From the NCBI GenBank assembly GCA_016188575.1, contig JACPHN010000150.1, forward strand, positions 24,828-88,827: a stretch of DNA of 64,000 nucleotides. Reading direction: 5' to 3'. A program made the translations under genes and the position numbers. Origin of the DNA: Candidatus Schekmanbacteria bacterium (lineage in GTDB: Bacteria > CSSED10-310 > JACPHN01). The notes beneath the pieces are model-generated. The model was given only the letters and a program-made list of their open reading frames with translations. It was not told the origin of the DNA and made no database searches. Of this stretch, positions 11,322 through 55,734 are shown one piece after another (the stretch's first letter is position 1; each line of letters opens with the position of its first letter).

Positions 11322-13058
11322 TCACTGCTGCCAGCGGCTGACCAGCTCGCGGAGCTCTTTCGGCGATACGGGTTTGGTCACGAAGTCGTCCATGCCCGCG
11401 GCCAGACACCGCTCGCGATCTTCCGGCAGGGCGTGCGCAGTGAGGGCGATGATAACCGCCCTGCGCCGGGGTTCCCGCGCTCGGATCTGGCGCGTGGCCT
11501 CGTAGCCGTTCAGCACCGGCATCTCGCAGTCCATGAGCACCAGGTCGAAGTCGCCGCTGCCGGCCGCGTCGACGGCCTCCCGGCCATCGGCAGCCATCGC
11601 GACCTGATGTCCGGCTCGCTTCAGAACCGCTGCGACCAGTTCTCGCGACGTTCCGTTGTCTTCGGCGACGAGGATGCGCCACGGCCGCGCCGCGACCTTC
11701 GCGGCAACGCCCGTCGAGGGCGCGGACGGCGCCGCGGCAGCCGCCGGCGGCCGGCGAAAAGGGAGCACTACCGCGAAGGTGCTGCCGGCGTCGGGAAGAC
11801 TGCGCACGGAGATCTCCCCCCCCATGAGCGCGACGAGCTCCCTGGCGATGGCGAGCCCAAGGCCGCTCCCCCCCGCCGGGCGCGGCGCCGCGCCGCATGC
11901 CTGGGCAAACGGCTCGAAGACAGCGGCCTGGTCCGCTTCGCAGATTCCGATTCCCGTGTCGCTGACCGTGAAACGCACCAAGACCTCATCCGCGGCCTCC
12001 GCTTCGAAATCGGTCCGGAGGGTAATCTCTCCCTTGTTCGTGAACTTCACTGCGTTACTCACCAAGTTCGCCAGCACTTGCCGGAGGCGCCCGGGGTCGC
12101 CGAGCACCGTGGCAGGGGCGGGGTAGCCCGCAGATGTCCTGAGCGTGAGCCGCTTGCGGGCCGCCACGGGGCCGTACAGCATCGCGACGCCCTCGACCAC
12201 CTGCGCGGGGTCGAATGGCTCACTCGCTACGGCCAGGCGATGCGCTTCGAGAGCAGAAAGGTCGAGGACATCGTTGAGAATGGACAAGAGGCTCCCGGAA
12301 GACGCCACGATGGCCTCTCCCCAGGCCTGCTGCTCGGCGCGCAGACCGCTTTCGACCAACAGCTCGGCCATCCCCAGCACGCCGTTCATGGGCGTGCGAA
12401 TCTCATGGCTCATGTTGCGCAGGAACGCGCTCTTGGCTCGGGTCGCGGCGTCGGCGGCTTCCTTCGCGCGGGCCAGCTCCTCGGCCTCTCTCTTGCGCTC
12501 GGTGATGTCCTCTTTGAAGCTGATATATCCCAGCACCGTGCCGTCGGCGGCGCAAACGGGGGAGATGGAGGCCATCTCCCAGTAGAGCTCGCCGCTCTTC
12601 TTGCGGTTGAGGAGCTCTCCGCGCCAAACCTGCCCGGCCGACAGGGCGCGCCACATCGCCTCATACACTGCGCGGTCCATCAGGCCGGACTTGAGGATGC
12701 GCGGGTTCTTCCCCACCGCCTCCGCTGCGGAGTAACCTGTGGTCCTGGTGAAGAAAGGGTTGACGTACTCGATGCAGCCGGCGGCATCGGTCATGACAAT
12801 GGAGGCGGCGCCTTGCTCGACGGCCGTCCACAGCTTGGCGCACAGGCTTTCCATGCTCTGACGTGCGGCGACCTGTGCGCGCAGCGACGCGTCGCGCGCC
12901 GCGCGCTGGCTACGCAACACCCGCGTTGCCTCGCGCTCTCCCGAGGCCTCCGAAATGTCGACGACGACGCACGAGTCCGGCGCAGCCGCCGCCGAGCCGG
13001 AGCCATCTGACCCGCCGCCGGCGCTCGTGGTCTCGGAAAAAAAGGATTCTTCACTCAT
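11322..13058 (-). CDS. PAS-containing hybrid sensor histidine kinase with C-terminal receiver
   Basis: A 578-residue cytoplasmic protein. Order: low-complexity N-terminus (1-30), a helix, PAS domain (about 75-190; IEYVNPFFTRTTGYS and the PAC end GYISFKEDITERK), HisKA with His218 in FLRNMSHEIRTPMNG, HATPase (GSGLGLAIAREL), and receiver (about 455-578) with phospho-acceptor Asp510 in LVLMDCEMPVLNG. No membrane segment is present. Its ATG at 13058 overlaps the TGA of iscB as ATGA, and the HEARO element is inserted exactly upstream, so its own ribosome-binding site has been moved away; translation may now depend on coupling to iscB. It is convergent with cheR; a link to the chemotaxis pathway is possible but not shown. 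Confidence 0.9.
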   Translation of the reverse strand: MSEESFFSETTSAGGGSDGSGSAAAAPDSCVVVDISEASGEREATRVLRSQRAARDASLRAQVAARQSMESLCAKLWTAVEQGAASIVMTDAAGCIEYVNPFFTRTTGYSAAEAVGKNPRILKSGLMDRAVYEAMWRALSAGQVWRGELLNRKKSGELYWEMASISPVCAADGTVLGYISFKEDITERKREAEELARAKEAADAATRAKSAFLRNMSHEIRTPMNGVLGMAELLVESGLRAEQQAWGEAIVASSGSLLSILNDVLDLSALEAHRLAVASEPFDPAQVVEGVAMLYGPVAARKRLTLRTSAGYPAPATVLGDPGRLRQVLANLVSNAVKFTNKGEITLRTDFEAEAADEVLVRFTVSDTGIGICEADQAAVFEPFAQACGAAPRPAGGSGLGLAIARELVALMGGEISVRSLPDAGSTFAVVLPFRRPPAAAAAPSAPSTGVAAKVAARPWRILVAEDNGTSRELVAAVLKRAGHQVAMAADGREAVDAAGSGDFDLVLMDCEMPVLNGYEATRQIRAREPRRRAVIIALTAHALPEDRERCLAAGMDDFVTKPVSPKELRELVSRWQQ

Positions 13059-14395
13059 CGGGTCTCCGGCGCGGAAACCTCGGCATTCATGCCGGGGAGG
13101 AAGCGCCTCTTTCCTTGGTTGTAGGTGTAGCCGTCGGCTCGTTGGAGCAGGCGGCAGTGTTTGTGCGAAATGCCCTGGACAGTACCAGCGACCGTTTGGA
13201 TGTTGAAGCTGCCCGTAGCACGTATCGCAACGCGCCCAACGTACGTGCCGACTTTTTTGCCTTGTGATACAACCGCGCGGACCAAATCGCCGGTTGCAAA
13301 ACCGTGTACACGCTTCTGCCGCATCAAATAGCCGCGCGGAAAGCCAAACTTGTCGACGCGCGTTCGCTGATAGCTGCCACGGCCACTGGCCTTGATCGCC
13401 AGTACGGGCTGCTGCCAACCCACGACGCGCTCGACCTCGCCCACGCAGACTGCGTCTAGCACGTGCGCCTTCGGGATACCGAATCGTGTGCGGTTCCACT
13501 TGGTTCGGCCGCCGCTACCGACCTGGAGGTCCAGGCCGGTGCTTGCGAGCGCTTGCCAGAGAACACGCCGTGTGACATTGACCGCGGCCGCGGTTGCCAG
13601 CGGCGCTTTCGCGGTCGCGAGAACATGCGCCAGTCGCTTGCTGTCGCGTTTGAGGAGCTCGCGGACGTCGTGACTGCCCTTGCGTTCGTTACACGGCCGA
13701 CAGGCGAGCGTGAGGTTGCACGCCCGATCGCTGCCACCACGTGACTTCGGCACGATGTGCTCGATCTGTAGCGGTACGTTTTCGGCGTCGCAATAAGCAC
13801 AGTGCCGACCCCACTTTTCGAGCAGGTACTCGCGCAGCTCGTAGCCGGCGAGCTCGCCTTGCTGGTACTCGACACCCGCGATCTCTGGGTTCTGCATCGC
13901 CTGGGTATCGAAGCGCACGGTTTCGACGGACACGGCGCTGATCGGGCAAAGCTTTCGATAGCGTCCAACCCAGGCCAGCACGTTGTCGAGCCGGCAGCGA
14001 AGACTTGGTGGCAACCATCCCTCGCGCCGGCGCCGGTTGTTGAATCGCGGTGCTCGATAGCGCAGGTTGGTCGACCGCCGGCGCCGGCGATAGTTGCTCC
14101 GCTGCTCGACGTGCTTGCGCACGACCTCACCCCGGTGCTCGATCTCGGCCAGATGCAGAACATGTTGCGTGCTACCGTCCTCACGGGCGAGCGCCACCCC
14201 GGTCGTCTTGGCCCCCGGATCGAGTTTCAGTCGCACCGGCTCTACCACGCTGTCCTCGAGGACGCGATCGACCAGGCGGATCGTAAACGGGTGCAGGCGA
14301 TGCACCCGTGCCCGGCCCGCCGCGAGCAGCTTGCGCGCTCGCTTCTCCGTGCACGGCATCAGCGGCCGTTTGCGCCTGTCTAACACGAAAACCAT
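13055..14395 (-). CDS. iscB: IscB, RNA-guided RuvC/HNH endonuclease
   Basis: A 446-residue protein, normal for IscB, the OMEGA nuclease ancestral to Cas9. N-terminal PLMP domain (MVFVLDRRKRPLMP), RuvC-I with Asp59 (KLDPGAKTTGVAL), arginine-rich bridge region (103-124), RuvC-II with Glu158 (SVETVRFD), HNH domain (about 195-245) with two CXXC pairs and catalytic His213 in IEHIVPKSRGGSD, RuvC-III with His311/Asp314 (KAHVLDAV), and a C-terminal target-adjacent-motif-interacting part (about 330-446). All catalytic residues look present. The start at 14395 is chosen because the PLMP domain begins there and the other copy starts at the same point. The stop TGA overlaps the ATG of the downstream kinase. 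Confidence 0.93.
   Translation of the reverse strand: MVFVLDRRKRPLMPCTEKRARKLLAAGRARVHRLHPFTIRLVDRVLEDSVVEPVRLKLDPGAKTTGVALAREDGSTQHVLHLAEIEHRGEVVRKHVEQRSNYRRRRRSTNLRYRAPRFNNRRRREGWLPPSLRCRLDNVLAWVGRYRKLCPISAVSVETVRFDTQAMQNPEIAGVEYQQGELAGYELREYLLEKWGRHCAYCDAENVPLQIEHIVPKSRGGSDRACNLTLACRPCNERKGSHDVRELLKRDSKRLAHVLATAKAPLATAAAVNVTRRVLWQALASTGLDLQVGSGGRTKWNRTRFGIPKAHVLDAVCVGEVERVVGWQQPVLAIKASGRGSYQRTRVDKFGFPRGYLMRQKRVHGFATGDLVRAVVSQGKKVGTYVGRVAIRATGSFNIQTVAGTVQGISHKHCRLLQRADGYTYNQGKRRFLPGMNAEVSAPETR
13081..13094 (-). repeat. Right-end hairpin of HEARO copy 1
   Basis: CGGCAT-TC-ATGCCG, 22 nt inside the right boundary and within the last codons of iscB. Copy 2 has a hairpin of different sequence (CCACCGG-CTGAAC-CCGGTGG, 55696-55715) at the equivalent place, 19 nt from its boundary. 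Conservation of pairing with changed bases suggests a terminal structure like those recognised by IS200/IS605-type transposases. Confidence 0.55.
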
Positions 14396-14721
14396 CGTTA
14401 CATCCAATGCCTCCGAAGAGGCCCCCACAAAGGGCTCGTGACGCCGCCAAGCTGGCTTGCTCGACGGTCTCCCCTCGACCCTGTTGGACAGCAGCCCTGT
14501 GTGCACGCTCGTTTCGGACCGACCCTACGGCTTGTCTGCAACGCGCACTTACAGAATCCGAGGCTGAGGAAGCACCTCGGAGTGTTACTTTTGCTCTGTG
14601 TCCAACGTAGATGTTTCAACGATTGCCAATCTCAACAACTTGGTCTGGTCAACATGCAAGCCTCGCGGCTTGCGACCTTCCTCCGGAGCAAGCTCCGGCC
14701 TTCAGGCCGGGGTAGTTGACC
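14396..14721 (-). ncRNA. Omega-RNA (HEARO RNA) region of copy 1
   Basis: This 326-nt non-coding stretch directly 5' of iscB is nearly identical to the 325 nt before the broken iscB of copy 2. Visible structure, in RNA orientation: a closing stem GGTCAAC (5' end) with GTTGACC; hairpins CCGGCC-TGAA-GGCCGG, GGAGC-TT-GCTCC and GCAAGCC-GCGA-GGCTTGC inside it; CCGAGG...CCTCGG; and a last hairpin GCCTC-TTCG-GAGGC just before iscB, whose outer pair changes G-C to A-T in copy 2. In known IscB systems the guide is the host sequence just 5' of the conserved RNA, here 16 nt at 14722-14737 (GATGGATGACCGCTAT in RNA orientation). Confidence 0.85.
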
Positions 14722-15102
14722 ATAGCGGTCATCCATCTCCATCGTGCACGTCATGAATGGAGGTCCAGACTGCCACGACAGGAGCAGTAGGCTTGCCCAT
14801 GCGGGCTGTGAGGGTGTGCCACGTTGCCCGGGCCAACACGGTGCTGCACCTGACTGCCTACAGCGTCCGCTCATCCCTCCCTCCCGCTTCCGGCAGCAGG
14901 TGAGCTTCGACGTTCTACGCACGCGTGTTCGCGGCTCTCTGGCGGCGATCCTATCGCGTGGCGGACAGGCTGTCAATCTCGAGCCGCCGGTACGCCTCGA
15001 GGAATCGATCGAGGTTGCCTCGCACAACGTCCCCTGGTCCTTTCGGCGCTCTGCAATCTGTGCAAGACCGAAGCAGACCGTTCCTGGAAAGTCGGAGCAG
15101 GA
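14722..15102. other. Scrambled region upstream of HEARO copy 1
   Basis: This 381-nt stretch holds no intact gene. The HsdM-like frame continues through it without family resemblance. In another minus-strand frame a protein-like segment, about 15060-14955, reads GPGDVVRGNLDRFLEAYRRL and runs to a stop, which could be the 3' end of another gene; I do not recognise it. The first 16 nt next to the element are the putative guide of copy 1. It appears to be the product of past deletion or insertion. Confidence 0.4.
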
Positions 15103-15465
15103 GTCGAAGTCGAGCTGCTCGAGCACCTCGCGCATGTTCGGCGAGAAGCCCGCGAGGTAATTGCGGAGGTTCGCGGCGAGGTGAGGCGCGTCGCCGAGCA
15201 GTGCGTCGAAGTCGTGGAGCGAGGTGTTGTAGAAGGCGTAGCCCGACGCCTTCCGGAGTTGCGGCTCGCGGTTCTGGAGGCCCAATGCCTGGAGCTTGGC
15301 GTTCACCTCGCGCACCTTGGTACGCGTCGGCTCGCGGACGCAGTCGATGCGGCGGAGCACCGTGAATGGCAGGATGACGTCCTGGTACTTACCGCGCTTG
15401 AAGTGGTCGCGAATGAGGTCGGCGACCGACCAGATGAAGGTGACCTTCTCGGCGAAGTTCCCCAT
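15103..15465 (-). pseudogene. hsdM: Truncated HsdM, type I restriction-modification methylase N-terminus
   Basis: About 121 residues from MGNFAEKVTFIWSVADLIR match the N-terminal helical domain of type I methyltransferase subunits (FKRGKYQDVILPFTVLRRIDCV and LAGFSPNMREVLEQLDFD are hallmark segments). After that point the frame stays open, but the residues no longer resemble HsdM, and the SAM-binding and NPPF motifs are missing. No hsdS or hsdR is nearby. This is therefore a relic of a restriction system, cut near 15103, and non-functional as a methylase. Its neighbourhood with the IscB element suggests a small accessory-DNA patch inside the chemotaxis region. Confidence 0.8.
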
Positions 15466-54796: not shown

Positions 54797-55121
54797 GGTC
54801 AACTACCCCGGCCGGAAGGCCGGAGCTTGCTCCGGAGGAAGGTCGTAAGCGGCGATGCTTGCATGTTGACCAGACCAAGTTGTTGAGATTGGCAATCGTT
54901 GAAACAGATGCGTTGGACAATCAGCAGAAGTAACACTCCGAGGTGCTTCCTCAGCCTCGGACCCTGTAAGTGCGCATTGCAGACAAACCGTAGGGTCGGC
55001 ACGAAACGGATGTGCACAGACGGCTGCTGTTCAACAGGGTCGAGGGGAGACCGTCGAGCAAGCCAGCTTGGCGCGTCACAAGCCCTTTACGGGGACCTCT
55101 TCGGAGGTATTGGAGGTAAGG
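54797..55121 (+). ncRNA. Omega-RNA (HEARO RNA) region of copy 2
   Basis: A 325-nt non-coding region closely matching copy 1 along its entire length. Paired segments are kept: GGTCAAC/GTTGACC closing stem, CCGGCC-GGAA-GGCCGG, GGAGC-TT-GCTCC, CCGAGG...CCTCGG, and the last hairpin ACCTC-TTCG-GAGGT, in which a compensatory change against copy 1 (GCCTC/GAGGC) preserves pairing. The RNA thus seems maintained although its own iscB is broken; it could be served in trans by copy 1. Putative guide: GACGGAGGGAAACTGA at 54781-54796. Confidence 0.83.
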
Positions 55122-55734
55122 ATGGTCTTTGTGTTAGACAAGCGCAAACGGCCGCTGATGCCGCGCGTGGAAGGGCGGGCGCGCTAGCTGGTCACGGCGG
55201 GACGTGCGCGGGTGCATCGCCTGCATCCCTTCACCATCCGCTTGGTCGATCGGCACCTTGAGGACGGCGTGGTCGCACCGGTGCGCCTGAAGCTCGATCC
55301 GGGGGCAAAAACAACCGGTGTCGCGATCGTCTGCGACGGAAGAAGTGCTGAGTTTCGAGTGCTGAGCACTAAGAAAAGGCAGAAGCCCGTGCTTGCCACC
55401 AAAGCCTGTGGCCGTGGCAGCTATCAGCGGACGCGCGTCGACAAGTTCGGCTTCCCGGGCAGCTATTTGATGCGGCAAAGGCGCGTCCACGGCTTTGCAA
55501 CCGGCGATTTGGTTCGTGCGATGGTGCCACGGGGCAGAAAGCCGGTATTTACATTGGGCGCGTCGCCGCACGGGACTCGGGTAGCTTCAACGTCCAGACG
55601 GACGCGGGTACGATTCAAGGCATTTCGCACAAACACTGCCGTCTGCTCCAGCGAGCGGATGGCTACACCTACAGCCACAGAAAGAGGCGCTTCTTCCACC
55701 GGCTGAACCCGGTGGTTTCCGCGCCGGAGACTGG
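54797..55734 (+). mobile_element. HEARO/OMEGA element, copy 2 (omega-RNA plus broken iscB)
   Basis: It starts with GGTCAACTACCCCGGCC and ends with TTTCCGCGCCGGAGACTGG right before ATGA, the same boundaries as copy 1 at 13059-14721. It is 938 bp against 1663 bp because most of iscB is deleted. The right-end hairpin is at 55696-55715. It separates the M50-like gene and its intergenic region from the start codon of a lipoprotein gene. Confidence 0.82.

What the first reader, a model, noticed from the sequence alone, without database searches (positions are those of the whole stretch)
13055..14737. Intact IscB RNA-guided nuclease locus with its omega-RNA
The protein has all hallmarks of IscB: PLMP domain, RuvC-I Asp59, arginine-rich bridge, RuvC-II Glu158, HNH with CXXC pairs and His213, RuvC-III His311/Asp314. 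A 326-nt structured non-coding region precedes it, as in HEARO/OMEGA loci. Annotation pipelines would call it only an HNH or RRXRR protein and would miss the RNA. The putative guide is the 16 nt next to the RNA 5' end.
Basis: partly seen in the sequence, partly recalled or inferred. Interest (0 to 1): 0.9.

Follow-up and report, generated by a model that had tools for sequence, protein, structure and literature searches.

The report
IscB element inserted at start codon
This is a genuine, intact copy of a known kind of mobile DNA that carries an RNA-guided DNA cutter (IscB) and its guide RNA; its less obvious feature is that it and most of its relatives sit exactly at the start codon of an ordinary host gene, so the guide is that gene's own leader sequence.

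Summary
The protein is an intact IscB (NCBIfam NF040563, 436 bits against a cut-off of 175). The RNA is a HEARO/omega-RNA (Rfam RF02033, 91.5 bits, window 14463-14720, minus strand). Corrections: NCBI's own model would name the protein; the conserved RNA is 258 nt, not 326; the guide is 14721-14736. It is also not a lone locus but one of about 15 omega-RNA copies in this genome, one of them elsewhere in this window.

Copy comparison gives the whole element: 14720 down to 13059, ending against the ATGA that starts a PAS/histidine-kinase/receiver gene. All 10 right ends found in this genome abut a gene start. So do 56 of 68 right ends from other bacteria, against about 20% of non-disruptive ATGA sites. 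In three Paraburkholderia cases, empty alleles in sister species show clean insertion between the 16-nt guide and the host's ATGA. Here iscB has no stop codon of its own: it stops at the TGA inside the host's ATGA. The guide is therefore the host gene's leader, and the target-adjacent motif would be its start codon.

The locus is a new member of a known kind. The start-codon habit may be under-described. Activity, expression and transposase are untested or unknown.

The parts
14721..14736 (-). Putative 16-nt guide (ATGGATGACCGCTATG), host flank immediately 5' of the omega-RNA; would be the leader of the kinase gene in the empty allele
   Evidence: Element left end = 14720 by copy comparison and by empty sites of relatives; only its own site matches with 0 or 1 mismatch in the whole genome
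14463..14720 (-). omega-RNA (HEARO) scaffold, starts GTCAAC
   Evidence: Rfam RF02033, 91.5 bits
13055..14395 (-). iscB, 446 aa; stop codon TGA (13057-13055) lies inside the host ATGA
   Evidence: NF040563 436 bits, Pfam RRXRR + HNH, PDB IscB matches, frame check
13059..13115 (-). Element right end: hairpin (CCTCCCCGGCATGAATGCCGAGG) and terminal GCGCCGGAGACCCG, conserved between copies; holds a Shine-Dalgarno-like GGAGA before the host ATG
   Evidence: Alignment of ten right ends in the genome
13055..13058 (-). ATGA: presumed target-adjacent motif; ATG = start codon of the host gene, TGA = stop codon of iscB
   Evidence: ATGA shown to belong to the host in empty sites of related elements
11322..13058 (-). 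Host gene at the insertion site: PAS - histidine kinase - ATPase - receiver protein, 578 aa
   Evidence: Pfam PAS_9, HisKA, HATPase_c, Response_reg
54798..55055 (+). Second omega-RNA of the same family in the window, 82.3 bits (just under the cut-off)
55056..55734 (+). Remnant of the second copy's iscB (start and C-terminus left, middle deleted, one TAG), again ending against ATGA of a 258-aa ORF

Best explanation
An intact IscB (OMEGA) mobile element of about 1.66 kb, consisting only of a 5' omega-RNA and iscB, inserted cleanly between the leader and the ATGA start codon of a host kinase gene. Shown here: the protein and RNA family, intact catalytic residues, multicopy spread, exact ends, clean insertion between 16-nt flank and ATGA in related elements, and a strong preference for gene starts. 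Inferred: transcription from the host promoter upstream runs through the flank and gives an omega-RNA whose 16-nt guide is the host leader; IscB loaded with it cuts DNA carrying that leader followed by ATGA, which is the element-free allele of the same gene; repair from the occupied copy keeps or restores the element. Because iscB stops at the TGA of the host's ATGA and the right end carries GGAGA, the kinase can still be translated by re-initiation or from the new ribosome site. A transposase, if any, acts in trans.
For: IscB. omega-RNA. Copies. Ends. Ten of ten own right ends open ORFs of 136-617 aa at that ATG. In other genomes 56 of 68 right ends open an ORF of at least 95 aa at the ATGA, against 20% of non-disruptive ATGA sites (binomial 9e-28; own 10/10, 1e-7). 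Downstream genes are full length from that ATG: RuvA, exonuclease III, LeuB, HisC, MoeB, TrpF, phosphomannomutase. Empty sites: ybgC, phosphomannomutase and MsrA; in L218 the empty allele equals the 16-nt guide of L070 and is followed by ATGA. Shine-Dalgarno 4-mers in the flank: 9/12 own and 19/51 others, against 12-14% background. NTGA and NTG motifs are measured for the sister nuclease IsrB (PMC9581776).
Against: No empty allele of this very site could be found (no match in the 7 other held genomes of the phylum). At the Allochromatium ubiA site the empty alleles carry 18 extra nt before the ATG, so not every insertion is shown to be clean. The window's own guide has no Shine-Dalgarno motif at the usual spacing. 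No transposase lies beside any copy. The binomial treats insertions as independent, although some loci come from the same genome. No expression or cleavage data.
Confidence: 0.85

Rival explanations
1. The nuclease is intact but the element is immobile and domesticated: the omega-RNA-IscB unit serves the host, for instance by binding or cutting gene leaders as a regulator or as defence.
For: No transposase beside any copy; the guide equals a gene leader, which would suit a regulator.
Against: Many copies with different guides, several decayed or internally deleted, as expected of mobile DNA; the guide has no other site with 0 or 1 mismatch in the genome; catalytic residues are kept, unlike dead regulators of the TldR type (general knowledge).
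Confidence: 0.08
2. The start-codon position is only a by-product of an ATGA motif plus removal of insertions that break genes.
For: ATGA is itself often a start; insertions inside genes would be lost.
Against: Among ATGA sites outside genes or at starts, only about 20% are starts, yet 10/10 and 56/68 insertions are. Selection for transcription from an upstream promoter, or a preference of the insertion step, is needed in addition.
Confidence: 0.3
3. It is an IsrB, a small Cas9, or an unrelated HNH homing endonuclease rather than IscB.
For: Weak Cas9d profile match over the HNH part (45.6 bits against a 375 cut-off).
Against: HNH domain present (IsrB lacks it), full IscB profile, HEARO RNA, 446 aa.
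Confidence: 0.02

Closest known systems
IscB / HEARO (OMEGA) systems, e.g. OgeuIscB, KraIscB, TbaIscB
   Same: PLMP, split RuvC, bridge, HNH, C-terminal TAM-binding region; 5' omega-RNA with guide at its 5' end; often without TnpA (PMC9755519)
   Different: iscB's stop codon is supplied by the host ATGA; element placed on a gene start. I found no text on start-codon placement in the held library. From memory, Weinberg 2009 reported HEARO at ATGA/GTGA sites; that paper is not held.
IsrB (DtIsrB and relatives)
   Same: omega-RNA type; measured TAMs NTG, NTGA, NTGG, i.e. start-codon-like (PMC9581776)
   Different: IsrB lacks the HNH domain and nicks; this protein has HNH
TnpB / IS200-IS605 guide-RNA retention of transposons
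   Same: Guide taken from the flank of the element, pointing at the empty site (general knowledge)
   Different: Guide on the other side of the element; nuclease unrelated in architecture; no TnpA found here

Membership tests
IscB | Match to curated IscB profile | tested here: met
   NF040563, 436.2 bits, cut-off 175, profile 1-314/314
IscB | RuvC-I/II/III and HNH catalytic residues intact | tested here: met
   D59, E158, H213, D314 invariant in 24 IscBs; H311 at least 90%
IscB | HEARO/omega-RNA directly upstream, same strand | tested here: met
   RF02033, 91.5 bits, above gathering score
IscB | Fold of IscB | tested here: met
   Ten best Foldseek matches are IscB/IsrB structures, best E 1.5e-25; overall rmsd is high, probably from loose domain placement
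IscB | RNA-guided cleavage with a defined TAM | not testable with these tools
   ATGA inferred from insertion sites only
IS200/IS605 autonomous element | tnpA (Y1 transposase) in the element | tested here: not met
   Eight PF01797 matches in the genome, none beside an IscB copy; no matching ends found
IsrB | No HNH domain | tested here: not met
   PF01844 and PF14279 match residues 199-249
Cas9 | Cas9 profile above cut-off | tested here: not met
   Cas9d 45.6 bits against a 375 cut-off

The most novel reading that the evidence does not exclude
A large clade of IscB elements lives by inserting precisely at translation starts: host start codon as TAM, host ribosome-binding leader as guide, host promoter as promoter of the omega-RNA, and in one subgroup the host ATGA as iscB's stop codon. 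Such insertions leave even housekeeping genes (ruvA, pth, obg, fabH, pyrB, leuB) usable. This explains how these transposase-poor elements persist and are expressed.
Probability: 0.5. Interest if true: 0.7.

Novelty: new member of a known kind. Interest (0 to 1): 0.5.

Why it matters
As a nuclease it adds one more compact IscB of a well-covered family. The wider pattern gives a concrete reading of why IscB/IsrB motifs look like start codons (NTG, NTGA) and where omega-RNA transcription starts. It predicts guides, promoters and targets for hundreds of loci from sequence alone, and makes the question of how IscB elements avoid harming the host directly testable.

Tried and rejected
Empty site of the window copy in its own phylum: none. 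A transposase with matching ends in the genome: Y1 genes exist but no matching ends were found. A second target for the guide: none with 0 or 1 mismatch; four sites with 2 mismatches, about what the control pattern gives. Universal Shine-Dalgarno in the guide: rejected, enriched but not universal. Generality of ATGA gene starts in the other-phylum genome G054: right ends there look like GTGA/GTAA and are not clearly gene starts. Universal TAM-supplied stop codon: only 16 of 71 in other genomes, all in this one. Papers by Weinberg 2009, Altae-Tran 2021 and Kapitonov 2015 are not held.

Full report
On the minus strand an ORF at 13055-14395 encodes 446 aa. It matches the curated NCBI model for RNA-guided endonuclease IscB over the whole profile at 436 bits, cut-off 175, and Pfam RRXRR and HNH. 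Sequence search of solved structures gives TbaIscB, OgeuIscB and other IscBs first. In an alignment of 24 IscBs the residues D59, E158, H213, D314 and the four presumed zinc-binding cysteines C199, C202, C232 and C235 are invariant. A ColabFold model (pLDDT 75.6) has IscB and IsrB structures as its best ten Foldseek matches.

Upstream, Rfam finds one RNA family in the whole 64-kb window above threshold: HEARO, 14463-14720, 91.5 bits. The claim that pipelines would miss both parts is not right, since both models used here are standard.

The locus is one of many. The assembled genome (9.2 Mb) has 15 HEARO matches and 30 IscB matches, many of them fragments at contig ends. A second copy lies in the same window at 54798-55734 with the middle of iscB deleted. 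Aligning copies shows where similarity starts and stops: GTCAAC at 14720 and, at the other end...GCGCCGGAGACCCG followed by ATGA at 13058-13055.

That ATGA is the start of a gene. In this genome all ten right ends found abut an ORF of 136-617 aa beginning at that ATG, including a rhomboid protein, a glutamate-cysteine ligase family protein and, in the window, a PAS/histidine-kinase/receiver protein. In all of them the iscB frame ends at the TGA of the same ATGA (one distant copy, L041, is garbled further upstream).

To see whether this is peculiar to one genome I fetched 80 related loci from other bacteria. Right ends were located by their conserved hairpin and terminus in 71; three were dropped as misplaced. 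56 of 68 open a frame of at least 95 aa at the ATGA. Among ATGA sites in the flanks that are either non-coding or gene starts, about 20% are starts (genes there were called by a simple longest-ORF rule). In a random draw of 20 downstream proteins, many are recognisable housekeeping proteins whose profiles begin at or near residue 1: RuvA 1, exonuclease III 1, MoeB 1, TrpF 2, LeuB 4, HisC 5.

Empty alleles settle the insertion point for three related elements. In Paraburkholderia, ybgC, phosphomannomutase and msrA exist without the element in sister species; flank and ATGA are contiguous there with nothing lost or duplicated. For L070 one sister species (L218) carries the exact 16-nt guide followed by ATGA. 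A fourth case, ubiA in Allochromatium, differs: empty alleles have 18 nt more before the ATG, so either the insertion was imprecise or that leader was already shorter.

The flank that serves as guide is enriched in Shine-Dalgarno 4-mers at the right distance from the joined start codon: 9 of 12 here, 19 of 51 elsewhere, against 12-14%. The window copy is among those without one at the usual spacing.

Mechanism, marked by status. Shown: family, intact residues, RNA, copies, ends, start-codon placement. Supported by literature: IsrB TAMs NTG/NTGA/NTGG (PMC9581776); IscB often lacks TnpA (PMC9755519). Inferred: that ATGA is this enzyme's TAM, that the guide targets the element-free allele, that transcription comes from the host promoter, and that the kinase is translated by coupling or from the GGAGA in the right end. 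Unknown: the transposase; eight Y1 genes exist elsewhere in the genome but no matching ends were found.

Novelty. The nuclease and RNA are a new member of a known family. The start-codon habit follows naturally from known TAMs, and HEARO sites of the form ATGA/GTGA were, as I recall, reported in 2009; I could not read that paper. I did not find the gene-start bias or the host-supplied stop codon described in the held library, which is incomplete.

Noticed in passing
window 54798-55734 (+): Second, decayed copy of the same element: omega-RNA at 82.3 bits (just below Rfam's cut-off) and iscB with its middle deleted, again ending at ATGA of a 258-aa ORF.
   Followed up: partly
window 14632-15465 (-): Remnant of a type I restriction methyltransferase subunit (HsdM N-terminal domain, 67 bits) whose frame decays and runs into the element's left end.
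   Followed up: no
G000 contigs C69, C170, C161, C172, C214, C88 and others: Many contigs of the assembly end inside copies of this element, so it is a cause of assembly breaks and the true copy number is probably higher than counted.
   Followed up: no
L029, L034, L038, L039, L040: A second omega-RNA subfamily in the same genome beginning GTCACCTTCTCC, with a 47%-identical IscB (L034) whose right end appears to precede a GTGG start.
   Followed up: partly
L114 and L115: The same insertion upstream of ybgC in two Paraburkholderia species, with nearly identical guides: either inherited or inserted twice.
   Followed up: no
L086 / L200-L204: Empty alleles of ubiA in Allochromatium carry 18 nt between the flank and the ATG that are absent in the occupied allele.
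   Followed up: partly
L127-L134: Eight Y1 transposase genes in the host genome, three of them closely related copies with ends unlike those of the IscB element.
   Followed up: partly
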